Source: Arthrobacter yangruifuii (lineage in GTDB: Bacteria > Actinomycetota > Actinomycetes > Actinomycetales > Micrococcaceae). From it: a stretch of 64,000 nucleotides of DNA. The stretch spans positions 372,001 to 436,000 of the forward strand of contig NZ_VTFX01000001.1 in NCBI RefSeq assembly GCF_009192775.1, given 5' to 3'. This document shows positions 47,001-59,153 of the stretch, in pieces (position 1 is the first letter of the stretch; every line of letters begins with the position of its first letter). Both the position numbers and the translations under genes were made by a program. The notes beneath the pieces are model-generated. The model was not told the origin of the DNA and did no database searches. It was given only the letters and a program-made list of their open reading frames with translations.

Positions 47001-47142
47001 GACCCCACTGTAATTGCGGCCTGCCGCGCGGTGTCGTCCGAACGGCTGGTGTTGCCTTCTCGATTTCCCCGTCCACCGAAACGCCGAAGTTGCTCCCGAA
47101 ATCCGGACGTGCGACCGTGGAGAGGAGGCCGCGACACGGTCT

Positions 47143-47186
47143 CCCGGACGAGGGGTGCCGTACCCGGTGTGCGACAAGACGGCCCG
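47143..47186 (+). ncRNA. Guanidine-III (ykkC-III) riboswitch
   Basis: The stretch contains the conserved pieces of the guanidine-III class in the right order: CCGGACGAGG (from 47144), GCCGTACCCGG (47157-47167) and GACAAGACGGC (47173-47183). GCCGT pairs with ACGGC to form the main helix, and the two CCGG elements can form the pseudoknot helix. It closely resembles the Thermobifida ykkC-III RNA as I remember it. It ends at the GGGAG ribosome-binding site (47188-47192) of the gdx gene, so guanidine binding should control translation start. Confidence 0.88.
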
Positions 47187-47198
47187 TGGGAGATTGCC

Positions 47199-47513
47199 AT
47201 GTCATGGATTGTTCTGGTGCTGTCCGGCGTCCTGGAAGCGGTGTGGGCCACGGCCCTGGACAGGTCGCAGGGGTTCAGCCGGTTCTGGCCGTCGGCCATC
47301 TTCGTCACCGCGCTCATCGCGAGCATGGCCGGACTGGCGTACGCGATGCGCGAGCTGCCGCTGGGCACCTCGTATGCCGTCTGGGTGGGCATCGGCGCCA
47401 CCCTGACCGTGGTGTACGGCATGGCCACGGGCGCGGAATCCGTCTCCCTCCTGAAAATCCTGTTCCTGGCCATGATCGTGGGCGGCGTGATCGGACTGAA
47501 AACACTCCACTAG
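47199..47513 (+). CDS. gdx: Gdx-type SMR guanidinium exporter
   Basis: A 104-residue small multidrug-resistance protein with four helices and the essential glutamate Glu13 in LSGVLEAVWA. The GFSRFWPS loop, YAMRELPLGTSYAVWVGIGA and VGGVIGLKTLH match the SugE/Gdx subgroup, which exchanges guanidinium for protons, rather than QacE-type drug pumps. Works as an antiparallel dimer. The guanidine-III riboswitch directly upstream confirms the substrate by context. The ATG at 47199 lies 6 bases after GGGAG. Confidence 0.92.
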   Translation: MSWIVLVLSGVLEAVWATALDRSQGFSRFWPSAIFVTALIASMAGLAYAMRELPLGTSYAVWVGIGATLTVVYGMATGAESVSLLKILFLAMIVGGVIGLKTLH

Positions 47514-47522
47514 GCCGCTTCC

Positions 47523-47582
47523 TTGACAGCACGGTAAACCGGGTGGCATGGTGGTCTGGCTCACACGCTGGAAACGTTTACA
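47523..47582 (+). promoter_or_regulatory. Promoter and LacI-type operator of the nine-gene operon
   Basis: A consensus -35 TTGACA (47523-47528) and CATGGT (47547-47552) are spaced by 18 bases. TGGAAACGTTTACA (47569-47582) is a 14-bp palindrome with a single mismatched pair and the central CG typical of LacI-family operators. It lies at or just after the transcription start, where repressor binding blocks elongation. Confidence 0.78.
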
Positions 47583-47599: not shown

Positions 47600-48646
47600 T
47601 TGGTCCGGGTCACCATCACGCAGGTCGCCGCGCATGCAGGTGTGTCCGTGGCATCTGCTTCGCGGGCGCTTAACGGACGGGTGGCGAGCGCCAAGACGGT
47701 CGCGAAGGTGCAGCACGCCGCCCAGGAACTGGGCTACGTCGCTGATGCGGCCGCGCAGTCGCTGAAACGGGGCCGCACCAACCAGCTCGCCTACGCCGTC
47801 GCGGACATCGGGAATCCGGTCCACGTCGAGATGATGACCGAGATCGAACGTGTCGTCTCCGCCTCCGGCTACCGGCTGGTCATGTCCTCCATGGGCACGT
47901 CCTCCTCGTCGGTGGACGTGGTCCGCGAGCTCGGCCGTGGATACGTCGACGGCATGATCCTCTCGCCGCAGCGCGTCACGGATGAACTGCTCGAGGTACT
48001 CGCAAAAACGCCGGTGCCTGTTGTCGTGCTCGGACGTCTGCCCGCCGGCGCCGGGCTGGACACCGTCCCTGCGGACTCTTTCACGGCCATGCACCTCGTC
48101 GTCGAACATCTCGTCGCCGAAGGCCGCGCGGACATTGCCTTCGTCAACGGGCCTGCCGACACCACCCCGGGGGCCTTCGGCCACGACGGCTTCGCAGCGG
48201 CGGCGGCGGCGGCGCATCCGGCACTCACCGTCCGCAGCCTGGAGGCGGAGAACTTCACGATTACGGCGGGCTATGCCGCTGCGCGCCGTGTCCTGCATGA
48301 GGACCGCCGCCCCGACGCCATCGTTGCCGCAAATGACCTGATCGGCATTGGCGCCCTTCGGGCCGCCGAAGACCTTGGCCTGGCCATTCCCGAAGACCTC
48401 ACCGTCACCGGCGTCGACAACACGGAACTCGCGGACGTCATCCGGCCGGGCCTCACCAGCGTGGACCTCGGCGCCCGCGAACGCGGCCGGTTGGCGGCGG
48501 AGCTGCTGCTCGCCCGCATCACGGAACCCGAGCGTGCGGTGCACACGGCCGCGGTCCCGCCCGCACTGGTTGTCCGCGGATCATCCCGCGCGCACACCTC
48601 GAACCCTGCCCACGCCTTCGATCACAACAACGGGAGAGCCGGATGA
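47600..48646 (+). CDS. LacI-family repressor of the nine-gene glycohydrolase operon
   Basis: A 348-residue LacI regulator beginning VTITQVAAHAGVSVASASRALNGR (helix-turn-helix plus hinge), with the sensor domain from about residue 60 (QLAYAVADIGNPVHVEMM, IVAANDLIGIGALRAAEDLG). The TTG at 47600, after AGGGGAG, is the best start, since the fold begins three codons later and no ATG/GTG is near; the spacing is short. Its end overlaps the first permease gene (ATGA). The operator at 47569 suggests autorepression of the whole operon until a sugar-like effector binds. Confidence 0.88.
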   Translation: MVRVTITQVAAHAGVSVASASRALNGRVASAKTVAKVQHAAQELGYVADAAAQSLKRGRTNQLAYAVADIGNPVHVEMMTEIERVVSASGYRLVMSSMGTSSSSVDVVRELGRGYVDGMILSPQRVTDELLEVLAKTPVPVVVLGRLPAGAGLDTVPADSFTAMHLVVEHLVAEGRADIAFVNGPADTTPGAFGHDGFAAAAAAAHPALTVRSLEAENFTITAGYAAARRVLHEDRRPDAIVAANDLIGIGALRAAEDLGLAIPEDLTVTGVDNTELADVIRPGLTSVDLGARERGRLAAELLLARITEPERAVHTAAVPPALVVRGSSRAHTSNPAHAFDHNNGRAG

Positions 48647-49593
48647 GTACCGCCACGAAAACCAGGCGCGAGGCAAAGGAGGATCCACGCCCCGTGAAAC
48701 GGGCCGGCCACCGCGTCCGTGCCCAACGGCGGGAAGCCATTGTGCTGGTGATTCCGGCGCTCCTTCCCATCCTCATCTTCTCCGTCATCCCACTCGTGAG
48801 CGGCGTGGCCCTTGGCTTCACCGACGCCACGCTGGCCCGGAACGCCGAGATCAATTTCATTGGTCTGGGGAACTTCATCGAACTTTTCGGAGACCACCGC
48901 TTCTGGGGGTCGTTCGGCATCGGCATCGTATGGGCAGGCGCCGTCGCCCTGCTGACCCTCATCGCCGCGATGGGACTGGCGCTGCTGCTGAACAGCGATC
49001 TCCGCCTGAAGGGGCTGACCCGTGTGCTGGCACTGATTCCCTGGGCCATGCCTCCGGTGGTCATCGCCATCGTCTGGCGGATGATCTACAACCCCAATTC
49101 GGGTCCCCTCAACGGCGTGCTCGAATCCTTCGGCATCCCCGGCGTCAACTGGCTCGGTGACTTTTCGACGGCGCTGCCCGCCGTTATCGTGGTGGGCGTC
49201 TGGGCCGGCATCCCGCAGACCACCGTGCTGCTGCTGGCGGGCATGCAGTCCATCTCCGCGGAGCAGCATGAGGCTGCGGCCGTGGACGGTGCAGGAGCGT
49301 TCCGCCGGTTCTGGCACATCACCCTGCCGGGCCTTCGCCCCATCATCTTTGCCGTGACCGCCCTGGACTTCATCTGGCAGTTCAATTCCTTCGGCCTCAT
49401 TTACGTCCTGACCGAAGGCGGCCCCGGCGGCCGCACCATGATCCCTCCGCTGTTCACCTACCTGGAGGCGTTCCGCAACCGGGAGATCGGTTACGCATCG
49501 GCAATGGGCGACGTCCTCGTGATTGCGATCCTGCTGATCCTGTCGCTGTACCTGGTCAACCAATTCCGCCAGACGAAGGAAGCACGGTCATGA
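48643..49593 (+). CDS. ABC sugar importer permease 1
   Basis: A 316-residue MalF-type permease with about six helices. The EAA loop that docks the ATPase reads EQHEAAAVDGAGAFRRFWHITLPGL. It starts inside the lacI stop and ends inside the start of the second permease, so the unit is tightly coupled. The family imports oligosaccharides or glycosides (CUT1). Confidence 0.93.
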   Translation: MSTATKTRREAKEDPRPVKRAGHRVRAQRREAIVLVIPALLPILIFSVIPLVSGVALGFTDATLARNAEINFIGLGNFIELFGDHRFWGSFGIGIVWAGAVALLTLIAAMGLALLLNSDLRLKGLTRVLALIPWAMPPVVIAIVWRMIYNPNSGPLNGVLESFGIPGVNWLGDFSTALPAVIVVGVWAGIPQTTVLLLAGMQSISAEQHEAAAVDGAGAFRRFWHITLPGLRPIIFAVTALDFIWQFNSFGLIYVLTEGGPGGRTMIPPLFTYLEAFRNREIGYASAMGDVLVIAILLILSLYLVNQFRQTKEARS

Positions 49594-50429
49594 ACTTCAG
49601 GCGCCCCTGGTACGCAACAGTGCTGATGTACATCGCCCTCGCAGGGTTCCTCGTTTTCCTGGGGTTCCCGCTGTTGTGGCTGCTGTCCGCGTCCTTCAAA
49701 TCCTCGGGAGAGCTGAACTCCCTGGCCGTCAACCTGGTGCCCGCCGAGTGGGATTTCAGCAACTACCGTTCAGCGCTGGAACGGCAGAACCTCCTGCCCG
49801 CGGCCCGCAACTCGCTCCTGGTCTCGCTCACAACGATGGTGATCACCGTGCTGCTGTCGATGCCGATGGCCTACGCCCTCGCCCGCCTCAAGGGCCGGCT
49901 GCGCGCCGCCGGGACCGTCTGGATCCTCACCAGCCAGGTCTTCCCTTCGATCCTCATCATCATCCCGCTTTTCCTGGTGCTTCGCTCGATCAACCTCAAT
50001 GACACCCTGTTCGGGCTGATCCTCGTGTACGTCACCTTCACCCTGCCGTTCACACTGTGGATGCTGCAGGGCTACGTTGCCGCGATACCGTCCGAACTCG
50101 AGGAAGCCGGCGAGATGGACGGAGCCTCGCGCCTGACCATCCTGCGCAGGATCGTTCTTCCGCTGCTCGCACCGGGGCTCGTTGCGACGGCCATGTTCAC
50201 GTTCGTTTCGGCGTGGAACGAGTTCTTCCTCGCCCTCGTCCTGCTGCAGAGCCCGGAACTGTACACGCTTCCCATCGCATTGCGCTCGTTCCTGGGAGCG
50301 GAAGGGCAGACCCAGCTCGGACCGCTGGCAGCCGGGGCGATCCTGGCGACCATTCCGTCACTCATCATCTTCACCATCCTGCAGAAAAAGCTGACCGGCG
50401 GCATGCTCGCCGGTGCGGTCAAAGGCTGA
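49590..50429 (+). CDS. ABC sugar importer permease 2
   Basis: A 279-residue MalG-type permease with six helices and the EAA loop ELEEAGEMDGASRLTILRRIVLP. It pairs with permease 1. No ATP-binding subunit is encoded in the operon, so a shared MsmK/UgpC-like ATPase from elsewhere in the genome must energise the complex, as is common in CUT1 systems of actinobacteria. Confidence 0.93.
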   Translation: MNFRRPWYATVLMYIALAGFLVFLGFPLLWLLSASFKSSGELNSLAVNLVPAEWDFSNYRSALERQNLLPAARNSLLVSLTTMVITVLLSMPMAYALARLKGRLRAAGTVWILTSQVFPSILIIIPLFLVLRSINLNDTLFGLILVYVTFTLPFTLWMLQGYVAAIPSELEEAGEMDGASRLTILRRIVLPLLAPGLVATAMFTFVSAWNEFFLALVLLQSPELYTLPIALRSFLGAEGQTQLGPLAAGAILATIPSLIIFTILQKKLTGGMLAGAVKG

Positions 50430-50481
50430 CCCCGCCCACCGGAAAACCATTCAACCCAGCAGCACAGAGAAAGCGAGCATC

Positions 50482-51777
50482 ATGAAGAGAATCCGAGGTT
50501 TTGGCGCCGTCGCAGTTGCGGGCGCGGTAGCCCTTGCCCTAACCGGTTGCCAGCAGGGCAGTTCAAGCGGCGGATCCGAGAGCGGGGAGGGCGACGCCGT
50601 CACCCTCCAGTTCCAGTCACTGTCCGACCAGCCGGCGACCCAGGAAGCCGTGAAGACGATCGTCGACAAATGGAATGCGGACAACGACGACGTCCAGGTC
50701 GAGATTGTCCAGGCCGGCTGGGACGGGACGTATGACAAGCTCATCACCCAGTTCGCCGGCGGAACCGCGCCGGACATCATCCACTATGAAGCGAGTTCCA
50801 TCGCCTCCTTCGCCTCCGACGGCTACCTTGCCGATCTGACCGATTACATCGACGCCGACCTGAAGTCGGATATCTCCGAGGGCGTCTGGGACTCCGTCAC
50901 GCGGGACGGGGAAATCATCGCGTACCCGTCCACGCTGCAGTCCTACATGGTCTTCGCCAACGCGGACCTGCTCGAGGCTGCGGGTGTGGAGGTACCCAGC
51001 GGTGACACCATGACCTGGGAGGAGCTGCAGGAGATTGCCAAGGCAACCACCACGGGAGGCAACTACGGTCTCGGCTGGGGCCTGGCCTCGCCGACGGCGA
51101 CGATGATGAGCCTCGCGCTCGGCTATGACGGCGGGTTCTTCGACGGCGAAGGCACCGAGGCGTCGATCGAGGTGGGCGACGCCGAGCTCGCCGTGCCCGA
51201 GCTGATCCACGAGATGGCCTACACCGACAAATCGATCGAACCCACCTCCCTGACACAGTCCGGATCGGACGTGCTGGCATCCTTCTACGGCGGCAAGGTG
51301 GCAATGACCGTGCAGGGCTCCTACCAGGCCGCCAATATCGCAAAAGATGCTCCGGAAGGCTTCAATTGGGTGGCGCTGCCCCCGTTGGAGGGCTCAGCAG
51401 GCGCAATTCAGGCCGCCAATCCGCAGACTTATTCCGTGAACATCGATTCGGAGCATGTGGAGGAGTCGGCCGAGTTCCTCAACTTCTTTATGAACGGTGA
51501 GAACCTCGCGTCGATCGCCTACGCGGACGCGCTCATCCCTTCGTCCGACTCGGCCCGCGCCGAGGTGGAAACCATGGCGGCGGACGAGCCGGCCTGGACC
51601 CAGGTGCTGGCCTCCGGCAACGGACTCGAAGGACCGCCGTTCCTCAAGGTGGAGAAGTACGCGGAGTGGAAGGACACCGTCGCCACCCCCGCTTACCAGC
51701 AGTATCTGGCCGACCAGATCACCAGCGAAGAGCTGTCGGCACAGCTCTCCGACGGCTGGACGGACATCAACGGCTGA
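50482..51777 (+). CDS. ABC sugar importer substrate-binding lipoprotein
   Basis: A 431-residue extracellular binding protein. The signal peptide ends in the lipobox LALTGC (Cys near residue 22), followed by a Ser/Gly/Glu linker and the two-lobed fold (VTLQFQSLSDQPAT, IITQFAGGTAPDIIHYEAS-like segment, GKVAMTVQGSY). It belongs to the extracellular solute-binding family 1 that captures sugars and glycosides. The ATG at 50482 begins the signal peptide; GAAAGCGAG upstream is a weak site. Confidence 0.93.
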   Translation: MKRIRGFGAVAVAGAVALALTGCQQGSSSGGSESGEGDAVTLQFQSLSDQPATQEAVKTIVDKWNADNDDVQVEIVQAGWDGTYDKLITQFAGGTAPDIIHYEASSIASFASDGYLADLTDYIDADLKSDISEGVWDSVTRDGEIIAYPSTLQSYMVFANADLLEAAGVEVPSGDTMTWEELQEIAKATTTGGNYGLGWGLASPTATMMSLALGYDGGFFDGEGTEASIEVGDAELAVPELIHEMAYTDKSIEPTSLTQSGSDVLASFYGGKVAMTVQGSYQAANIAKDAPEGFNWVALPPLEGSAGAIQAANPQTYSVNIDSEHVEESAEFLNFFMNGENLASIAYADALIPSSDSARAEVETMAADEPAWTQVLASGNGLEGPPFLKVEKYAEWKDTVATPAYQQYLADQITSEELSAQLSDGWTDING

Positions 51778-51850
51778 TGGCCTGCGCGGGGGCGGCCATC
51801 CGGTCCGCCCCCGCCCCGTCGTCGCTCTTCGGGCCAACCAAGGAGCAGGA

Positions 51851-53026
51851 ATGAACCTATTGCGGGATCGAGTGGCCGGGGTGCTGGCGGGTGCCGCCGT
51901 CGGAGATGCACTGGGTGGCGCGACGGAGGGCTGGTCCCCTGAACAGATAGAGGAGCGGCACGGCGGCTGGGTCGAGGGCATTGTGGGCCCCTTCCTCGCC
52001 GACTGGAAAACAGCACGGCCCATCGCGCCGTACCACAAGGGCGACGGGCACATCACGGATGACACCCTCATGACCCACGCGCTTGTGGAGGTCTACGCCA
52101 GGCGCCGGCGCCACCTGGACGCCTACGACGTCGCTGCGGACCTGGTGCCGCTCATGATCGGCGAGCGGCGGTGGGTACCGGAACTCGAAGACTCCGCACT
52201 GATCCTGCAGCGGGTCTTCCTCGCAGAGAAGTGGATCGTCGCGAAGCTGCACTACGGCCACGCCGATCCGCGCGAGGCCGGCGTGGGAAACATCGTCAAC
52301 TGCGGCGCCACTATGTATATGGCCCCGGTGGGGCTCGTGCACATCGGCGATCCGCGTGGCGCCTATGCGGAGGCCATCGACCTCGCCGGAGCGCACCAGT
52401 CCTCCTACGGCCGCGAGGCAGCAGGCGTGTTCGCGGCGGCGGTGGCAGCATCCGCCGCGCCGGGCGCAACCGTCGCCGATATACGGAACGCCGTCCTGGA
52501 TGTTGCCCACGACGGCACCGCCGCAGCCATCCGCGCCGTCTTCGGCGCCGTCGATGCCTTTCTCAACGACGGCGGATCGGAGGACCCGCGCGACGTTGCC
52601 CGGACCGTGCGCGCCGCCGTCGCCCCGTTCGACACCGTGGGCGAAAACTACCGGTCCCCGGCGATGGATGCCCGCCTGCCGTCACGCACCAAATCGATCG
52701 AGGAGCTGCCCGCCGCCCTCGGCTTTGTGGTCGCCCGCGGCGGGAACCTGCGAGCCTCGGTGCTCGACGCCGTCAACTACGGCCGCGACGCCGACTCCAT
52801 CGCGGCGATGGCCGGTGCCGTCTGCGGGGGCCTGGGCGGCGTCGACGCCGTGCCGCCCGACTGGGTTGCGGAGGTGATGGCTGCCAGCCGGCTGGACCTC
52901 GACGCCGTCGTGGATTCGATGGCGGAGGTGGTGCGCGAAGTGGCCGGGGCGGACGCGGACCGGGCAGCGCGGCGGGCCGAGGAGCTGTCCGCATTGCTCA
53001 GCAGGGAGGCCGCACCGTGCGACTGA
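51851..53026 (+). CDS. ADP-ribosylglycohydrolase-family enzyme 1
   Basis: A 391-residue enzyme of the ADP-ribosylglycohydrolase (ARH/DraG) fold. The fold starts RVAGVLAGAAVGDALGGATEG. The two metal-binding aspartate sets are present: Asp70-Asp71-Thr72 in HITDDTLMTH, and D313-A-D315 in NYGRDADSIAAMAGA, so a two-magnesium active site should form. AGGAGCAGGA precedes the ATG. In this sugar-import operon, cleavage of an N- or O-glycosidic bond in an imported compound is more likely than removal of protein ADP-ribose. The next gene is a divergent second member, overlapping by 10 bases. Confidence 0.9.
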   Translation: MNLLRDRVAGVLAGAAVGDALGGATEGWSPEQIEERHGGWVEGIVGPFLADWKTARPIAPYHKGDGHITDDTLMTHALVEVYARRRRHLDAYDVAADLVPLMIGERRWVPELEDSALILQRVFLAEKWIVAKLHYGHADPREAGVGNIVNCGATMYMAPVGLVHIGDPRGAYAEAIDLAGAHQSSYGREAAGVFAAAVAASAAPGATVADIRNAVLDVAHDGTAAAIRAVFGAVDAFLNDGGSEDPRDVARTVRAAVAPFDTVGENYRSPAMDARLPSRTKSIEELPAALGFVVARGGNLRASVLDAVNYGRDADSIAAMAGAVCGGLGGVDAVPPDWVAEVMAASRLDLDAVVDSMAEVVREVAGADADRAARRAEELSALLSREAAPCD

Positions 53027-54411
53027 CCTGGGCACAGCCGGAGGACCTGGTCGCCGGTGAGCTCACGGCGCTCCGCGAGCAGGGCGCCGCGGAGAGCGGC
53101 ATCGCGCCGATCGAACAGCGGTGGGCGGACGCCGGCGGATCAACGCGGCCCGCGCCGTCGGGGGCAGGCGAGGCCCCCGCCCCTCCGGCACTGCGCGCAC
53201 TTGCCCGCACCCTGCTGGATGAACTGCAGGCCCTGCAGGTACCAAGCGCAGCGGAACCGGACGAGTGGAACGACATTGCCGCCCTGCTCCCTCCGGCCCG
53301 GCCGACCCCGGGGACCGCTGTGGCCTTCGAACGGGTGCACGGCGCCTGGCTGGGCCGCTCCGCCGGATGCCTGCTGGGGAAACCCGTGGAGAAAATCCCC
53401 CGCGAAGGCATAGAACAAATTGCCCGGGCCACCGGGAACTGGCCCATCTCCACCTATTTCACTGCGGCGGGGCTCACCCGGGACCTCGCCGAACGCTGGC
53501 CCTGGAACCGCCGCTCCGCCCCGACCTCGCTGACCGAGAACATTGAGGGGATGCCCGAGGACGATGACCTGAACTTCGCCATCCTCGGGCTCGGGCTGCT
53601 GGAGGCCCACGGCGGGAACCTGACCACCGAACACATTGCGGGAGCCTGGCTCGCCGCCCTGCCGGCGGGCCGGATCTTCACGGCCGAACGCGCCGCCTAC
53701 CGGAACCTCCTCGACGCCCGCGAAATCCCGAACACCGCACGGCACCACAACCCGTACCGCGAATGGATCGGAGCGCTCATCCGCGCCGACGTCCACGGCT
53801 GGGTGCATCCGGGAGATGCACGTGCCGCCGCCGCCTCAGCCTGGACCGATGCCCGGCTCAGCCACACCCGCAACGGTATCTACGGGGAAATGTGGGCCGC
53901 CGCCCTGTGCTCCGCCTCCCTCACCGAGACCACCGCCGACGCCGTGCTGGACGCCGGTGACACCGTCCTGCCGCCGGCCTCCCGCCTCGCCGCCGCGGTG
54001 CGCCTCGGCCGGACCACCGGCCGCTCCCTCGCCCGCGGCCGGCTGACCGAGGCCCGCTCCCTCGATCTCCTTCACCGGGAGTTCGACGGCATGCACTGGG
54101 TCCACACCCTCAACAACGCCGCCCTCATCGCCTGTGCGCTTCAGGCCTACGGTGAGGATTTTGATGCCGCCGTCGCGCTGGCCGTGGCGGGCGGATGGGA
54201 CACCGATTCCGTCGGCGCAACCGTGGGGTCCGTCGTCGGCGGGCTCCTGGGCGCCGGGGCGATCGATGAGGCATGGACCGCTCCGCTGCAGGACCGCATC
54301 GCGACCTCGCTTCCCGGCGGGGCCTCCCGCTCCATCCGGGATCTAGCTGAACGGACCCTCCGATTATCCCGGGGGACCGTCCCGGGCGTCATCGAAAGGA
54401 TGAAGGTATGA
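53017..54411 (+). CDS. ADP-ribosylglycohydrolase-family enzyme 2
   Basis: A 464-residue second member of the ARH fold. A variable N-terminal region (about 1-100) precedes RVHGAWLGRSAGCLLGKPVE. The metal-binding aspartates are in GMPEDDDLNFAIL (Asp182-184) and AGGWDTDSVGATVGS (Asp395, Asp397). It is clearly different from the first copy, so the two probably have separate tasks, or form a heteromer. The GTG at 53017 overlaps the end of copy 1; GGGAGG lies 8 bases before it. The stop overlaps the next start (ATGA). Confidence 0.88.
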   Translation: MRLTWAQPEDLVAGELTALREQGAAESGIAPIEQRWADAGGSTRPAPSGAGEAPAPPALRALARTLLDELQALQVPSAAEPDEWNDIAALLPPARPTPGTAVAFERVHGAWLGRSAGCLLGKPVEKIPREGIEQIARATGNWPISTYFTAAGLTRDLAERWPWNRRSAPTSLTENIEGMPEDDDLNFAILGLGLLEAHGGNLTTEHIAGAWLAALPAGRIFTAERAAYRNLLDAREIPNTARHHNPYREWIGALIRADVHGWVHPGDARAAAASAWTDARLSHTRNGIYGEMWAAALCSASLTETTADAVLDAGDTVLPPASRLAAAVRLGRTTGRSLARGRLTEARSLDLLHREFDGMHWVHTLNNAALIACALQAYGEDFDAAVALAVAGGWDTDSVGATVGSVVGGLLGAGAIDEAWTAPLQDRIATSLPGGASRSIRDLAERTLRLSRGTVPGVIERMKV

Positions 54412-56366
54412 GTGGTGGCTTCGACCCCCTACGGCCGCGCGAATACGACCTGCCCACCCGGGTACCCCTCGAGACTGACCTGGCAGCCGGGGATGCTGCG
54501 CTCACCCTCGACGACGCGAAGATCTTCGCGGCCCCGTCCAACTCCCGTGACCTGGCCCGCTGGCGGGAGCAGCTCACCGCCTGGCGGAACGGCGCGAGGG
54601 AACGCTTCGTTGGCCCCAGCCGGTACGACGACGGCGCGTCTGCCTGGGCGAGCCGGTGCTTCGCCGTGGCGCAGGTCTGGCTGTGGGACGAACTCTTTTT
54701 CGACTTCCAGTCGCAGCGGTTTACTCCGGGGCGCTTCCTCGCCGACGCCCGCGAACGGTTCGGCGGGTTGGACGGCGTTGTGCTGTGGCACGCCTATCCG
54801 GTCATCGGCATCGATGACCGGAACCAGTGGGACTTCTACAACGTGCCGGGACTTCCCGAAGCCGCCGAGGCGCTGCACGCCTCGGGAGTGGCCGTGTTCC
54901 TGGCCTACATGCCGTGGGACACGGGAACCCGCCGCGGCGGTGATGACGCCAGCGAGCTCGCGGCGGCGGTGCGCCGCATCGGCGCGGACAGCGTTTTCCT
55001 GGACACGCTGAGGAAAGCCGACCGGGCGCTCGTCGAGGTCCTGGATGCTGCCCGTCCCGGCATCGGCCTCGAGGGCGAGTCGAAGCTCACCACCGGGCGG
55101 ATCGCCGACCACACGCTGTCCTGGGCGCAGTGGTTCGCGGACTCCGAGACCCCCGGCGTTCTCCGTGCACGGTGGTTTGAGCGCCGGCACATGCAGCACC
55201 ACATCCGCCGCTGGCACCGGAACCACGCCGTGGAACTGCGCTCGGCCTGGCTCAACGGTGTCGGCATTGTGGTGTGGGAGGTCGTTTTCGGTGCGTGGGT
55301 GGGCTGGAATGACCGGGATGCCGCCACCCTGCGCCGGATGCTGCCCGTCCAACGCGGTTTCCACCGCTGGCTGGTGGAGGGGGAGTGGACGCCGCTAACT
55401 GTAACGGCGGATCCGCTCGTCGGATCGACCTTTGAGCTCAACGGTGTCACGCTGCTGCTCCTGGCCAACACTTCGGACGAGGACGCCAAGTATCCCCTGG
55501 CCGGCAGCGGCTGGGCGGCGCTGCATGACGGCGACACTGCCGACGTGGTCACCGTGCCCGCGAACGGGATAGCCGCTGCCGTGCAGGTCAGTGCCGGCGC
55601 CGCCGTCCCCCCGCAGATCGACGCCGTCCGGGCCATGCTCTCCGGGAAAACGGCCGAGCATGATGCTTCCTTCCGGCACCGCCCCGCACAGCGCCTGCCC
55701 GCACCCCGCTGGAACGGTCCGGTGGCCCCGGCCTCGGCGTCCATGGTTACGGTTTCGGCCGGCACCTACACCCTGACCCTGCGGTACCGGATGCGGGAAA
55801 CCGGCATGTATGACGGGGCGCCCTACGTCGACGAGTGGAAACCGCTCTCGCCCCGGCTCCACGACCAGCGCACGCTGGAGCGGACCGTGACGGTTCCGGT
55901 TCCGGTGCAGGTCGCGGCGGCCGAGGTAAGCGAGGCGGAGTACGCCCGGTTTCTCGACACTCTCGGCGAGCCCACACAGGCCCGCGACCCCGACCGTCCG
56001 GCCACCCGGGTCACCTTCGCCCGGGCCAGGGACTATGCGGCCTGGGCCGGCGGCCGCCTTCCATCCGAGGACGAGTGGCAGCTCGCCGCCGCCCTGCCCG
56101 GCTTCGTCCGCAGAACCCCGGAGGTGTGGAACTGGACCGAGTCCGAGCACTCCGACGGCCGTACCCGCTTCGTCATGCTCAAAGGCGGCAGCGCACACCG
56201 CAGCGAGGGATCCAACTGGTATTTCGACGGCGGGGTGCAGCCGCCGGAGTTCAGTGCCAAGCTGCTGCTGCCCGGACTCGGTCTGGACGCGTCCACGTCG
56301 ATCGGTTTCCGGATCTGCAGGGATCAGGCCCCGGATTGGAACGCCGGCGAAGGGGTTCCCGGATGA
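54408..56366 (+). CDS. TIM-barrel glycosidase-like protein with C-terminal SUMF/FGE-type domain
   Basis: A 652-residue fusion. The N-terminal part (about 60-370) looks like a glycoside-hydrolase TIM barrel: VVLWHAYPVIGIDDRNQWDF, VAVFLAYMPWDTGTRRGG, ADSVFLDTLRKAD and PGIGLEGESKLTTG offer candidate catalytic Asp and Glu residues. A beta-rich linker (about 370-480) leads to an FGE-sulfatase/SUMF-type C-type-lectin-like domain (about 500-640; VSEAEYARFLDTLG, RDYAAWAGGRLPSEDEWQLA, SIGFRICRD). The cysteine pair needed for formylglycine formation is missing, so this domain is probably structural or ligand binding. It overlaps both neighbours by four bases. Confidence 0.78.
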   Translation: MSGGFDPLRPREYDLPTRVPLETDLAAGDAALTLDDAKIFAAPSNSRDLARWREQLTAWRNGARERFVGPSRYDDGASAWASRCFAVAQVWLWDELFFDFQSQRFTPGRFLADARERFGGLDGVVLWHAYPVIGIDDRNQWDFYNVPGLPEAAEALHASGVAVFLAYMPWDTGTRRGGDDASELAAAVRRIGADSVFLDTLRKADRALVEVLDAARPGIGLEGESKLTTGRIADHTLSWAQWFADSETPGVLRARWFERRHMQHHIRRWHRNHAVELRSAWLNGVGIVVWEVVFGAWVGWNDRDAATLRRMLPVQRGFHRWLVEGEWTPLTVTADPLVGSTFELNGVTLLLLANTSDEDAKYPLAGSGWAALHDGDTADVVTVPANGIAAAVQVSAGAAVPPQIDAVRAMLSGKTAEHDASFRHRPAQRLPAPRWNGPVAPASASMVTVSAGTYTLTLRYRMRETGMYDGAPYVDEWKPLSPRLHDQRTLERTVTVPVPVQVAAAEVSEAEYARFLDTLGEPTQARDPDRPATRVTFARARDYAAWAGGRLPSEDEWQLAAALPGFVRRTPEVWNWTESEHSDGRTRFVMLKGGSAHRSEGSNWYFDGGVQPPEFSAKLLLPGLGLDASTSIGFRICRDQAPDWNAGEGVPG

Positions 56367-57550
56367 ATCCGCTCACCGGACTGCGCGTAGTGGACGCCTC
56401 CACCCTTTTCGCCGGCCCGCTGGCAGCCATGCATCTGGGTGACATGGGAGCCGACGTGGTCAAGGTGGAGCATCCGCACCGCCCGGACCCGGCACGCAGC
56501 CACGGGCCGAGCAAGGACGGGCAGAACCTCTGGTGGAAAACGCTCGGGCGCAACAAGCGCACCGTCGCGATTGACCTGCACACCGACGGCGGACGGGACG
56601 CGTTTCTGCGTCTGGCGCGGACCGCGGACGTGGTGATTGAGAACTTCCGCCCCGGCACGCTCGAACGCTGGGGGCTGGACTACGCCGCCTTGTCCGCCAG
56701 CAACCCCGGACTGATCCTTGCCCGCGTCACGGGATTCGGGCAGATCGGCCCGTATCACCGGCGGCCGGGATTCGGCACGCTGGCCGAGGCGATGAGCGGC
56801 TTCGCCTCCTCCACCGGCGAACCGGATGGCCCGCCGACACTTCCGCCGTTCGGGCTGGCCGACGGCGTTGCGTCCCTCGCCACCGCCTACGCGGTCATGG
56901 TCGCCCTGCACGCCCGGGAGAGGGACGGCAAAGGCCAGGAGGTCGACGTCGCGATCATCGAGCCGATCCTTGCAATGCTCGGTCCGCAGATCACGCGGTG
57001 GGACCAATTGGGAACCGTGCAGCCGCGCACGGGAAACCGCTCGGACAACAACGCACCGCGCAACGCCTACCGCACCGGCGACGGGTCCTGGGTGGCGGTC
57101 TCCGCGAGTGCACAGTCCATCGCCGAGCGCGTGGTCACCCTGGCCGGCCGGCCGGAACTCGCGGACGAGCCCTGGTTCGCCAGCGGCGCGGCCCGCGCCG
57201 AGCACGCCGACCTCCTGGACGACGTCGTCGGCTCCTGGATCGCCCGGCACTCCCGGGAGGAGGTCATCGCCGCCTTCGAGGCAGCGGACGCCGCCGTGGC
57301 ACCCATTTACGATCCGTCCGACATTGTGGCCGACCCCCAGTTCAACGCGCTGGGAACCATCCACCGGATCAAGGACGCCGAGCTGGGCGACATGGCCATG
57401 CAGGGGCCGCTGTTCCGGATGTCCCGGGATGAGGCCCGGATCGCGTTTACCGGAAGGGCGCACGGAGCGGACACGGAGGAGGTACTCACTGAACTGGGCT
57501 ACTCGGCGACCGAACTCGCGGCGCTCCGCGGGAACGGAAGCATCGGATGA
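56363..57550 (+). CDS. CaiB/BaiF-type (family III) CoA-transferase
   Basis: A 395-residue family III CoA-transferase. It opens LTGLRVVDASTLFAGPLAAMHLGDMGADVVKVE (two adjoining segments of the family start), with NKRTVAIDLHTDGGRDAF, PGLILARVTGFGQIGPYHRR and the expected catalytic Asp in PPFGLADGVASL. These enzymes move CoA between acyl-CoAs and acids such as succinate, citramalate, itaconate or mesaconate. It sits between the glycosidase-like fusion and a CitE-type lyase with ATGA overlaps, so it probably loads CoA on the acid that the lyase then cleaves. Confidence 0.93.
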   Translation: MNPLTGLRVVDASTLFAGPLAAMHLGDMGADVVKVEHPHRPDPARSHGPSKDGQNLWWKTLGRNKRTVAIDLHTDGGRDAFLRLARTADVVIENFRPGTLERWGLDYAALSASNPGLILARVTGFGQIGPYHRRPGFGTLAEAMSGFASSTGEPDGPPTLPPFGLADGVASLATAYAVMVALHARERDGKGQEVDVAIIEPILAMLGPQITRWDQLGTVQPRTGNRSDNNAPRNAYRTGDGSWVAVSASAQSIAERVVTLAGRPELADEPWFASGAARAEHADLLDDVVGSWIARHSREEVIAAFEAADAAVAPIYDPSDIVADPQFNALGTIHRIKDAELGDMAMQGPLFRMSRDEARIAFTGRAHGADTEEVLTELGYSATELAALRGNGSIG

Positions 57551-58410
57551 GCCGGCCGGTCATCGTGGCACTCTACGCACCGGCGGACCGTCCGGAGCGG
57601 TTCGACAAGGCCCTGCGCGCGGGGGCGGACGCGGTCATCGTGGACCTTGAGGACGCCGTGGCTGCCTCGCACAAAGCATCCGCCCGGGCGGCACTGGCTG
57701 ACTTTGCCGCGTGCTGGGAGGCCTGCGGTGCAGGTGCTCCCGCCGTCCAGGTGCGGCTGAACGCCGCCGGATCCGCTGAGCATCAGGCCGACCTCGCCGC
57801 GGTTGCCGGGCTGCCCTCGGTCTTCGGGGTCCGGCTGCCGAAGACCTCCTCGGCCGGGGACATTGCCGCACTCCGGGCTGCGCTGCCGGGGCGGGAGGTG
57901 CACGCCCTGCTCGAATCGGCCCTGGCGGTTGAGCGGGCCTTCGAGATCGCCTGCTCCGGGGTCTCCACCCTCGCGTCCGGCGAAGCGGACCTGCGCGCCG
58001 AACTCGGGGTTCCCGCCGGTCCGGCCGGAGAAGCGGGCCTGGCCTGGTCCCGCAGCCGCATCGTGAATGCGGCCGCTGCTGCCGGGCTGCCCGCTCCGCT
58101 GATGGCCGTCTACGCCGACGTTGCGGATCTTGGCGGACTGGAAGCCAGTTGCCGCACCGGCCGCGGCCTGGGCTTCGGCGGCCGGACTGCCGTGCATCCG
58201 CGCCAGCTGGAGGTCATCCGCCGCGTGTTTACCCCGGACGCCGCGGAGGTGGCGCGTGCACGGCGCATTATCGACGGCGTGCGAACCGCGGCGGCAGACG
58301 GAACCGGAGCCTTTGTGCTGGCGGACGGAACCTTCATTGACGTGGCGATGGTGCGGGCCGCCAAGCGGGTCATCGCCCTGGCCGGCCCGGAGCGGAGGAT
58401 GGACCGCTGA
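57547..58410 (+). CDS. CitE-type lyase (HpcH/HpaI family)
   Basis: A 287-residue lyase of the citrate lyase beta/citramalyl-CoA/malyl-CoA group. Recognisable are ADAVIVDLEDAVAASHK, VRLNAAG, LLESALAVERAFEIA and the metal-binding ASGEADLRAELG. The partner CoA-transferase suggests that it cleaves a hydroxyacyl-CoA into acetyl-CoA (or a homologue) and a keto acid, as citramalyl-CoA lyase does. It ends the nine-gene operon and is followed by a hairpin. Confidence 0.92.
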   Translation: MSRPVIVALYAPADRPERFDKALRAGADAVIVDLEDAVAASHKASARAALADFAACWEACGAGAPAVQVRLNAAGSAEHQADLAAVAGLPSVFGVRLPKTSSAGDIAALRAALPGREVHALLESALAVERAFEIACSGVSTLASGEADLRAELGVPAGPAGEAGLAWSRSRIVNAAAAAGLPAPLMAVYADVADLGGLEASCRTGRGLGFGGRTAVHPRQLEVIRRVFTPDAAEVARARRIIDGVRTAAADGTGAFVLADGTFIDVAMVRAAKRVIALAGPERRMDR

Positions 58411-58466: not shown

Positions 58467-59153
58467 ATGACTGCTGCGGGAGCTGTGCTGGAGATATCCC
58501 AACTGCTGGTGGGGTACGCCGGTGCGCCCGTGTGCGGCGCCATCACCGCCCGTGCCGACGCCGGGGAAATCCTCGGCGTGGTGGGTTTCAACGGGGCCGG
58601 TAAATCCACCGCCGCCCGCACCATCGCCGGAAAGCAGCAGATGCTGGACGGCGAAGTGCGCCTGCACGGCCTGCCGGTCAACGAGGACGCCATCCCGTTC
58701 CGCCGCGAGGTGGCCGCCCTCTTTGACGAGGACGCTTTCTTCCCGTCCCTGTCACTGCGCGAACACCTGCAGCTGGTGGCCCGCGGCCATTCGGTCCCGG
58801 ACCCGGATGCCGCCGTCGACGCGGAACTGGACTTTTTCGGCCTGCAGGACCGCGCCGGCGCCGTTCCGGATTCCATCTCGTCCGGCCAGCGCCGCCGGCT
58901 GCTGCTCGCCTCGGCATTCATCCGCCCCTCCTCGCTGCTCATCCTCGACGAACCCGAGCAGCGCCTGGACCCGGTGATGCGCGAACGGGTGGGGTTACGC
59001 ATCCGGAAGTACGCCGACGACGGCGGCACGGTACTGCTGGTGACGCACGATCCCGCCCTGCTCCTGGCGACGGCGGGACGCTGCCTGCTGATCGATGACG
59101 AGGTCCGGGAGATTGACCCGGCCCGCGCCGCCGCTGAAATTGCCGGGAAATAG
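58467..59153 (+). CDS. ABC-type ATP-binding subunit paired with the DUF6297 protein
   Basis: A 228-residue ATPase with Walker A GVVGFNGAGKSTAAR, signature ISSGQRRRLLLA, Walker B SLLILDEPEQRLDP and the switch His in LVTHDP. The signature is the less usual SSGQRRR, as in CcmA/drug-efflux type ATPases. It lies 3 bases before the membrane gene, so they form one transporter or membrane-remodelling unit of unknown substrate. Confidence 0.92.
   Translation: MTAAGAVLEISQLLVGYAGAPVCGAITARADAGEILGVVGFNGAGKSTAARTIAGKQQMLDGEVRLHGLPVNEDAIPFRREVAALFDEDAFFPSLSLREHLQLVARGHSVPDPDAAVDAELDFFGLQDRAGAVPDSISSGQRRRLLLASAFIRPSSLLILDEPEQRLDPVMRERVGLRIRKYADDGGTVLLVTHDPALLLATAGRCLLIDDEVREIDPARAAAEIAGK

What the first reader, a model, noticed from the sequence alone, without database searches (positions are those of the whole stretch)
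47600..58410. Nine-gene LacI operon joins sugar import, two ARH-fold glycohydrolases, a SUMF fusion and CoA-transferase/lyase
Seen: nine same-strand genes, most with ATGA-type overlaps, behind one LacI-type operator. Known: CUT1 ABC import takes up glycosides; ARH-fold enzymes cut N- or O-glycosidic bonds to ribose-like sugars; CaiB plus CitE-type enzymes convert an acid to its CoA ester and cleave it to acetyl-CoA and a keto acid. Inference: the cell imports a glycosylated (perhaps ribosylated) hydroxy acid, the ARH pair and the TIM-barrel protein free the acid, and the last two enzymes break it down. I know of no described pathway with this set of genes, and ARH enzymes in carbon uptake would be a new role.
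Basis: partly seen in the sequence, partly recalled or inferred. Interest (0 to 1): 0.85.

Follow-up and report, generated by a model that had tools for sequence, protein, structure and literature searches.

The report
Conserved riboside-and-acid breakdown operon
A nine-gene bacterial operon, kept in the same order in many soil actinobacteria, appears to import a ribose-containing compound and break it down with proteins of a family known for removing ADP-ribose, which suggests that such proteins may also serve in feeding.

Summary
In detail: nine same-strand genes at 47600-58410, 6 of 8 junctions overlapping, behind one LacI-type operator found once in the 3.5 Mb genome. Of 80 related loci, 73 span the region; 70 of 73 carry all nine genes, in one order. 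The window lacks one partner: 59 of 73 loci have a ribokinase-like gene between ARH2 and the SUMF fusion. Entered by CaiB, 30 of 30 best places (window included) lie beside the fusion or ARH2-RbsK, 29 with CitE. Related sets occur in Streptomyces-like genomes and plasmids of rhizobia and kin. The fusion models as a GH13/GH129-like glycosidase barrel and lacks the formylglycine-generating cysteine pair. My reading: a ribofuranoside is imported, the ARH pair frees ribose and a hydroxy acid, and CaiB and CitE cleave the acid to acetyl-CoA and a keto acid. Conservation is shown; ribose is supported by the kinase; acid and intact substrate are inferred. Seven searches of an open-access library found no paper on this set, though an ARH-permease-ribokinase trio is tabulated in staphylococci.

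The parts
47569..47582 (.). LacI-type operator TGGAAACGTTTACA; it ends 17 bp before the LacI start
   Evidence: One site in the genome. CG-centred 14-bp palindromes (at most one mismatched pair) upstream of 61 of 71 LacI-cluster genes of related loci against 30% of random stretches.
47600..48646 (+). LacI-family regulator, TTG start
   Evidence: Pfam Peripla_BP_3 and LacI; best NCBIfam score to ribose repressor RbsR, 184 bits, below its cut-off of 382.
48643..49593 (+). CUT1-type permease A
   Evidence: BPD_transp_1; UgpA/GlcT/MalF-like, below cut-offs.
49590..50429 (+). CUT1-type permease B
   Evidence: BPD_transp_1; GlcU/MalG-like, below cut-offs.
50482..51777 (+). sugar-type solute-binding protein (lipoprotein-like N-terminus by eye)
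   Evidence: SBP_bac_1, SBP_bac_8; sugar-binding proteins in the PDB.
51851..53026 (+). ARH1: ADP-ribosylglycohydrolase-family protein, 391 aa
   Evidence: PF03747 153 bits; TDD conserved in 73 of 73 and DxDS in 72 of 73 aligned members.
53017..54411 (+). ARH2: second ADP-ribosylglycohydrolase-family protein with about 100 extra N-terminal residues
   Evidence: PF03747 135 bits on residues 109-418; EDD and DxDS in 72 of 72.
54408..56366 (+). glycosidase-barrel and SUMF-like fusion, 652 aa
56363..57550 (+). CaiB: family III CoA-transferase
   Evidence: CoA_transf_3 395 bits; Asp167 in 77 of 77.
57547..58410 (+). CitE-type beta-hydroxyacyl-CoA lyase
   Evidence: HpcH_HpaI; RipC-like 136 bits, cut-off 375; E35, D36, R70, E123, E146, D148 in 71 of 71.

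Best explanation
The operon is a LacI-controlled catabolic unit for a D-ribofuranoside (most likely 1,2-cis, alpha) that carries a hydroxy acid. Shown: the genes, their order, their conservation, and conserved catalytic motifs. Inferred: (1) the CUT1 importer, with an ATPase made elsewhere, takes the compound up; in some lineages an esterase beside the operon trims it first. (2) The SUMF-fusion enzyme, an alpha-glycosidase-like barrel, removes another glycosyl group, or is an alternative glycosidase, where it is present. (3) ARH1 and ARH2 hydrolyse the ribosyl bond at a two-metal site. (4) Ribose goes to ribose 5-phosphate by a ribokinase, encoded in the operon in most relatives and perhaps elsewhere in this genome. 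(5) The freed acid, probably of the citramalate or 2-alkylmalate type, is loaded with CoA by CaiB and split by CitE to acetyl-CoA and a 2-keto acid.
For: All nine genes in one order in 70 of 73 spanning loci; ribokinase-like gene in 59 of 73. Two copies of that kinase scanned: 241 and 245 bits to TIGR02152, under its 299.65 cut-off; N10, D12, G38, K39, N42, E136, D241 kept in >=97% of 55 copies (their role in ribose binding is recalled). Entry by CaiB: 30 of 30 best places beside the fusion or ARH2-RbsK, 29 with CitE. Entry by ARH1: 9 of 9 Streptomyces-like stretches hold ARH1-ARH2-CaiB-CitE. Plasmids of rhizobia and kin: importer and ARH1 in 12 of 12 loci read, ARH2 11, CaiB 7, CitE 6. Esterases beside 16 of 80 loci and L203, L204. 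Glycosidase fold. In print, an ARH gene, a nucleobase-type permease and a ribokinase gene stand in a row in staphylococci (PMC3637587, PMC3321955, passages), which pairs ARH with ribokinase and uptake in another phylum. Distant CaiB homologues sit with MmgE/PrpD, cyclase, FAD and amidohydrolase genes in L194, consistent with an alkylmalate-type acid.
Against: No activity, ligand or transcript data. No natural ribosylated alkylmalate is known to me, and one targeted paper search gave no relevant hit by its listing. The window copy and 14 of 73 loci lack the kinase. The Streptomyces-like clusters have no importer in the stretches read. L037, L073, L139 and 5 of 12 plasmid loci lack CaiB, so acid cleavage is separable from riboside handling. 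CaiB and CitE score below every equivalog cut-off. The kinase scores below the ribokinase cut-off, so another pentose is possible. The correlated distances (r 0.72-0.95, 63 loci) have no control for the species tree, and CitE correlates least (0.72-0.84).
Confidence: 0.5

Rival explanations
1. The ARH pair frees ribose from an imported riboside, but CaiB-CitE handle a second, separate acid that is merely available at the same time, for example one released by the esterase.
For: CaiB and CitE are missing in L037 and L073 and L139, CaiB in 5 and CitE in 6 of 12 plasmid loci, while ARH and importer genes stay. Esterases occur beside 16 of 80 loci. The staphylococcal trio in print has no CaiB or CitE in the passages seen.
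Against: 4-bp overlaps and 30 of 30 co-location when selected by CaiB; 9 of 9 Streptomyces-like stretches keep ARH1-ARH2-CaiB-CitE with no importer in the stretch.
Confidence: 0.25
2. The sugar is not ribose but another furanose (for example another pentose or a branched sugar) phosphorylated by a ribokinase-like kinase.
For: The kinase lies below the ribokinase cut-off; in a Sphingopyxis plasmid a GH127 (beta-L-arabinofuranosidase-type) gene stands between fusion and CoA-transferase genes.
Against: The residues that I recall as ribose contacts in ribokinase are conserved; ARH enzymes are known to me only on ribosyl bonds (recalled); the LacI scores best to RbsR, under its cut-off.
Confidence: 0.15
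3. The ARH proteins are ordinary ADP-ribosyl hydrolases and the operon salvages ADP-ribosylated or nucleotide-derived compounds.
For: Family membership; SCO2028-SCO2031 are listed in print as uncharacterised DraG/ARH homologues (PMC9411070; SCO2028-SCO2030 in PMC5087735; passages). The permease of the staphylococcal ARH-ribokinase trio is annotated for nucleobases.
Against: Sugar importer, kinase, CoA-transferase and lyase partners; no nucleotide-handling gene among them; SCO2028 and SCO2030 showed no activity on U-alpha-ADPr (PMC13036486, passage); ARH1 has Tyr156 (72 of 73, Phe in one) where the printed ARH3 and MJ1187 alignments show Arg, effect untested.
Confidence: 0.08

Closest known systems
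DraG / ARH1 / ARH3 ADP-ribosylhydrolases (PF03747)
   Same: Same domain, with both metal-binding motifs conserved.
   Different: In a sugar-uptake operon with kinase and CoA enzymes; a pair here, four in several relatives; only short stretches align to solved members; ARH2 has EDD in place of TDD.
Staphylococcal ADP-ribosylglycohydrolase-permease-ribokinase genes (SERP2218-SERP2216 type)
   Same: ARH, an uptake protein and ribokinase side by side (PMC3637587, PMC3321955, passages).
   Different: One ARH, a single cytosine/purine-type permease, no LacI, CUT1, CaiB, CitE or SUMF fusion in the passages seen; no function is given there. I did not compare the sequences.
CUT1 LacI sugar operons and ribose operons (rbs)
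   Same: LacI regulator, importer, in most relatives a ribokinase-like gene, one operator.
   Different: Permeases and binding protein are of the CUT1 type, the sugar would be freed inside by ARH proteins, and a CoA branch follows.
Itaconate/citramalate degradation (RipC, Ccl type lyases) with CoA-transferase
   Same: CoA-transferase plus CitE-type lyase; CitE is closest to RipC (136 bits) and to PDB 8khl (131 bits).
   Different: No hydratase gene in the operon; scores far below equivalog cut-offs; tied to a glycoside-type operon.
GH13 and GH129 glycosidases
   Different: 9-16% identity in the listed rows, no Pfam glycosidase match better than E 0.2 in 45 members, fused to a SUMF-like domain.

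Membership tests
ADP-ribosylglycohydrolase family (PF03747) | domain match over the curated cut-off | tested here: met
   153.2 and 135 bits against 26.2.
ADP-ribosylglycohydrolase family (PF03747) | metal-binding TDD and DxDS/T motifs (role recalled) | tested here: met
   ARH1 TDD 73 of 73, DxDS 72 of 73; ARH2 EDD and DxDS 72 of 72, with E for T.
ADP-ribosyl hydrolase (function) | removes ADP-ribose from proteins or nucleic acids | not testable with these tools
   No assay. SCO2028 and SCO2030 negative on one substrate (PMC13036486, passage); that SCO2028-2033 equal the cluster of L140-L148 is inferred from gene order and numbering.
Formylglycine-generating enzyme | copper-binding cysteine pair near the C-terminus (role recalled) | tested here: not met
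   Only Cys84 and Cys637 in the window protein; 13 of 78 relatives have two or more Cys in the matching region, not examined further.
GH13/GH129 glycosidase | barrel fold with carboxylates on strands 4 and 5 | tested here: inconclusive
Family III CoA-transferase | CoA_transf_3 domain and catalytic Asp (role recalled) | tested here: met
   394.8 bits; Asp167 77 of 77.
RipC citramalyl-CoA lyase | NF038242 equivalog score over cut-off | tested here: not met
   136.4 against 375.
Bacterial ribokinase (kinase of relatives) | TIGR02152 equivalog score over cut-off | tested here: not met
   241.4 and 244.7 against 299.65, two copies scanned; recalled ribose contacts are conserved.
CUT1 sugar importer | two permeases and a binding protein of sugar type | tested here: met
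   Pfam, NCBIfam and PDB matches; no ATPase gene in the operon, while the five loci carry ugpC.

The most novel reading that the evidence does not exclude
ARH-family proteins are dedicated alpha-D-ribofuranosidases of a widespread, undescribed catabolic pathway: fungal or plant ribofuranosides are imported, the ARH proteins act as food enzymes and not as modifiers of signalling, and the aglycone acid is burnt by a CaiB-CitE pair. The ADP-ribosylglycohydrolase genes of the Streptomyces-type cluster would then be misnamed.
Probability: 0.5. Interest if true: 0.82.

Novelty: new variant of a known kind. Interest (0 to 1): 0.67.

Why it matters
If true, a protein family read as a sign of ADP-ribosylation signalling has a second, nutritional role, and the count of ADP-ribosyl hydrolases in Streptomyces coelicolor (eight DraG/ARH homologues listed in PMC9411070, passage) would include catabolic enzymes. 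It would also point to an unclassified glycosidase family and a route that joins pentose use to acetyl-CoA formation. The system is conserved, and relatives live in tractable hosts, so it can be tested soon.

Tried and rejected
Formylglycine-generating role for the SUMF part: rejected for the window protein, no cysteine pair. Anti-phage defence: no PADLOC match for ARH1, ARH2 or the fusion. Artefact of one genome: rejected. A wider regulon that includes a ribokinase gene elsewhere: the operator pattern occurs once in the genome; two ribokinase-like genes elsewhere (42% over 272 aa in L116, 32% over 321 aa in L115) could serve.

Paper searches aimed at the gene set: ARH with PfkB; with glycoside hydrolase, operon and CoA-transferase; with ABC transporter and LacI; with ribofuranoside; with CoA transferase and citrate lyase; with nucleosidase (0 papers each). 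ARH with ribokinase gave 4 papers; I read passages of three: two tabulate a staphylococcal ARH-permease-ribokinase trio without a function, one names the two genes in different places; the fourth was seen by listing only. Ribofuranosyl with citramalic acid and glycoside gave 1 unrelated paper by listing. alpha-D-ribofuranoside gave 32 papers, several of them on fungal metabolites, by listing and abstract starts only. SCO2028-SCO2033 gave 4 papers; passages of all four were read, one (PMC5036795) irrelevant. A Pfam scan of 45 fusion proteins named no family for the barrel. Substrate ideas considered in thought and dropped for lack of evidence: arsenosugars, methanopterin, cobalamin alpha-ribazole, bacillithiol, apiose. 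Foldseek's own search never ran, so only the VIA-align second look was seen; residues beyond 401 are barely tested there. ARH1 was not modelled. In L199 (GC 47.5%) my ORF caller, tuned to high GC, found nothing, so that CaiB place is unread.
Full report
What is there. The nine genes lie on the + strand at 47600-58410: LacI, two CUT1-type permeases, a binding protein, two ADP-ribosylglycohydrolase-family proteins (ARH1, ARH2), a 652-aa protein whose residues 491-581 match the SUMF/FGE domain, a family III CoA-transferase (CaiB) and a CitE-type lyase (Pfam, NCBIfam, PDB). Five of the eight junctions are 4-bp ATGA overlaps, one is a 10-bp overlap and two are gaps of 52 and 73 bp. LacI starts at TTG 47600; my protein reference began at 47603, one codon late. 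The operator TGGAAACGTTTACA (47569-47582) is the only site of its pattern in the 3,535,373 bases held. CG-centred palindromes stand upstream of 61 of 71 LacI-cluster genes in related loci, against 30% of random stretches.

Conservation. A search with the SUMF-fusion protein in named genomes gave 150 confirmed loci, of which the best 80 were kept, all actinobacterial by title: Arthrobacter, Microbacterium, Mycetocola, Oerskovia, Amycolatopsis, Glycomyces, Kribbella, Leifsonia and others. Of these 80, 73 had enough flanking DNA. All nine genes are present in 70 of 73; LacI in 71, both permeases, the binding protein, ARH2 and the fusion in 73, ARH1 in 72, CaiB and CitE in 71 each; the order is not broken in any of the 70. 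L037 lacks LacI, ARH1, RbsK, CaiB and CitE by my criteria; L073 lacks RbsK, CaiB and CitE; L053 lacks only LacI. Median gaps are -4 bp for eight of the ten junction types. Pairwise distances of the nine proteins correlate at 0.72-0.95 over 63 loci, CitE least; this has no control for the species tree. The sample was chosen by the fusion protein, so two other entry points were used.

Entry by CaiB. In 394 genomes of the class, 93 have a match at E <= 1e-120. The 30 best places, the window among them, all lie beside the fusion gene (17) or beside ARH2-RbsK (13), and 29 are followed by CitE; the exception (L176) showed none within the short flank. Thirteen larger stretches were read: L189-L193 carry the ARH operon; L200 has CaiB-CitE before LacI-importer-ARH1; L194, L195, L196, L197, L198 and L201, with CaiB 58-67% identical, lie in other settings, and CitE is next to CaiB in three of these six (L194, L195, L201); in L199 my ORF caller found nothing. 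In L194 the neighbours are MmgE/PrpD, a PF04199 cyclase, an FAD_binding_2 protein and an amidohydrolase; L196, L197, L198 and L201 look alike in part, by eye only. I read this as a CaiB-CitE module for an alkylmalate-type acid that different upstream routes feed; that is inference.

Entry by ARH1. Only 10 of 396 genomes of a phylum sample match at E <= 1e-20, the window's own and nine of one genus of 7.8-9.9 Mb, but 73 of 101 genomes of that genus match at E <= 1e-60. There, between gltB-like and trp/lgt-like genes (by eye), stands ARH0a-ARH0b-ARH1-ARH2-(RbsK)-CaiB-CitE, with no importer or fusion in the stretch: ARH1, ARH2, CaiB and CitE in 9 of 9, RbsK in 6 of 9, ARH0a and ARH0b matched in 9 of 9 (in L140 ARH0a over 179 residues only). 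In the window's own genus 6 of 29 genomes have ARH1 at E <= 1e-30, own included. Five genomes of family f107 have LacI-importer-ARH0a-ARH0b-ARH1-ARH2-RbsK-CaiB-CitE, four of them with the fusion. Nonomuraea L139 has the importer, four ARH genes and RbsK but no CaiB, CitE or fusion. The fusion protein has strong matches (E <= 1e-130) in 17 of 297 genomes of the order, own included, three of them in two pieces. The system is thus patchy.

Outside actinobacteria. A protein search of plasmids with ARH1 matched 22 records, 20 of them rhizobia and kin. I read 12 of these: importer and ARH1 12 of 12, ARH2 11 of 12 (699 aa with an unnamed C-terminal part in the copy scanned), CaiB 7 of 12, CitE 6 of 12, an adjacent ribokinase 2 of 12 (L136; L210 on the other strand). 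L211 looks broken in several genes. A Sphingopyxis plasmid has TonB receptor-RbsK-fusion-GH127-CoA transferase; a Spirosoma plasmid has a fusion relative without the other partners in the stretch shown.

The missing gene. 59 of 73 loci hold, between ARH2 and the fusion, a PfkB kinase; 14 of 73, and the window, do not. Two copies scanned score 241 and 245 bits to bacterial ribokinase, under the 299.65 cut-off. The residues that I recall as ribose contacts are conserved in at least 97% of 55 copies. The window's genome has two ribokinase-like genes elsewhere. This kinase is the strongest hint that ribose is freed.

Esterases. Sixteen of 80 loci have an esterase gene beside the operon, a long form (11 loci) or a short form (6 loci, L084 counted in both); one of each was scanned and matches PF00756, the long one with a beta-propeller repeat too. 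Two f107 loci have the long form divergent from LacI. The window has none. This suggests an acyl group on the natural substrate.

Literature. All ten searches of an open-access library were used; seven aimed at the gene set and none found it. On checking, two papers do tabulate, in staphylococci, an ADP-ribosylglycohydrolase gene, a cytosine/purine-type permease gene and a ribokinase gene in a row, without a function in the passages seen (PMC3637587, PMC3321955). This supports ARH-ribokinase coupling and means that this pairing as such is in print as annotation. Passages of PMC5087735 and PMC9411070 list SCO2028-SCO2030 and SCO2028-SCO2031 as uncharacterised DraG/ARH homologues, and a passage of PMC13036486 reports no activity of SCO2028 and SCO2030 on U-alpha-ADPr. 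That these are the ARH genes of the cluster in L140-L148 is my inference from order and numbering. Listings show alpha-D-ribofuranosides among fungal metabolites, so a natural supply exists, though none seen carries an alkylmalate.

Verdict. A riboside-catabolic operon with ARH enzymes is the best reading; the riboside step is more likely than not, the link of ribose and acid in one molecule is about even, and the acid's identity is open.

Noticed in passing
window 47122-47188 and 47199-47513, +: Guanidine-III riboswitch (RF01763, 69 bits) directly upstream of a small SMR-type exporter gene (104 aa), likely a guanidinium exporter (inference); it sits just before the LacI operon.
   Followed up: partly
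L194 5552-13073, L201 8485-12726: CaiB-CitE pairs related to the window's stand with MmgE/PrpD, PF04199 cyclase, FAD_binding_2 and amidohydrolase genes (Pfam for L194 only, L201 by eye), possibly another undescribed acid pathway.
   Followed up: partly
L140-L148: Streptomyces-like genomes keep a four-ARH cluster with CaiB-CitE between gltB-like and trp/lgt-like genes, with no importer in the stretch; the source of its substrate is unclear.
   Followed up: partly
L138 13021-15120: This ARH2 from a Sinorhizobium plasmid has about 390 extra C-terminal residues with no Pfam match.
   Followed up: no
window 58467-59153, +: An ABC-type ATPase gene follows 56 bp after CitE; it also follows in L005 but is not generally conserved with the operon.
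   Followed up: no
L001 892-2388 and L004 1369-2478 (own genome): Two further PF03747 genes lie elsewhere in the genome, in other settings.
   Followed up: no
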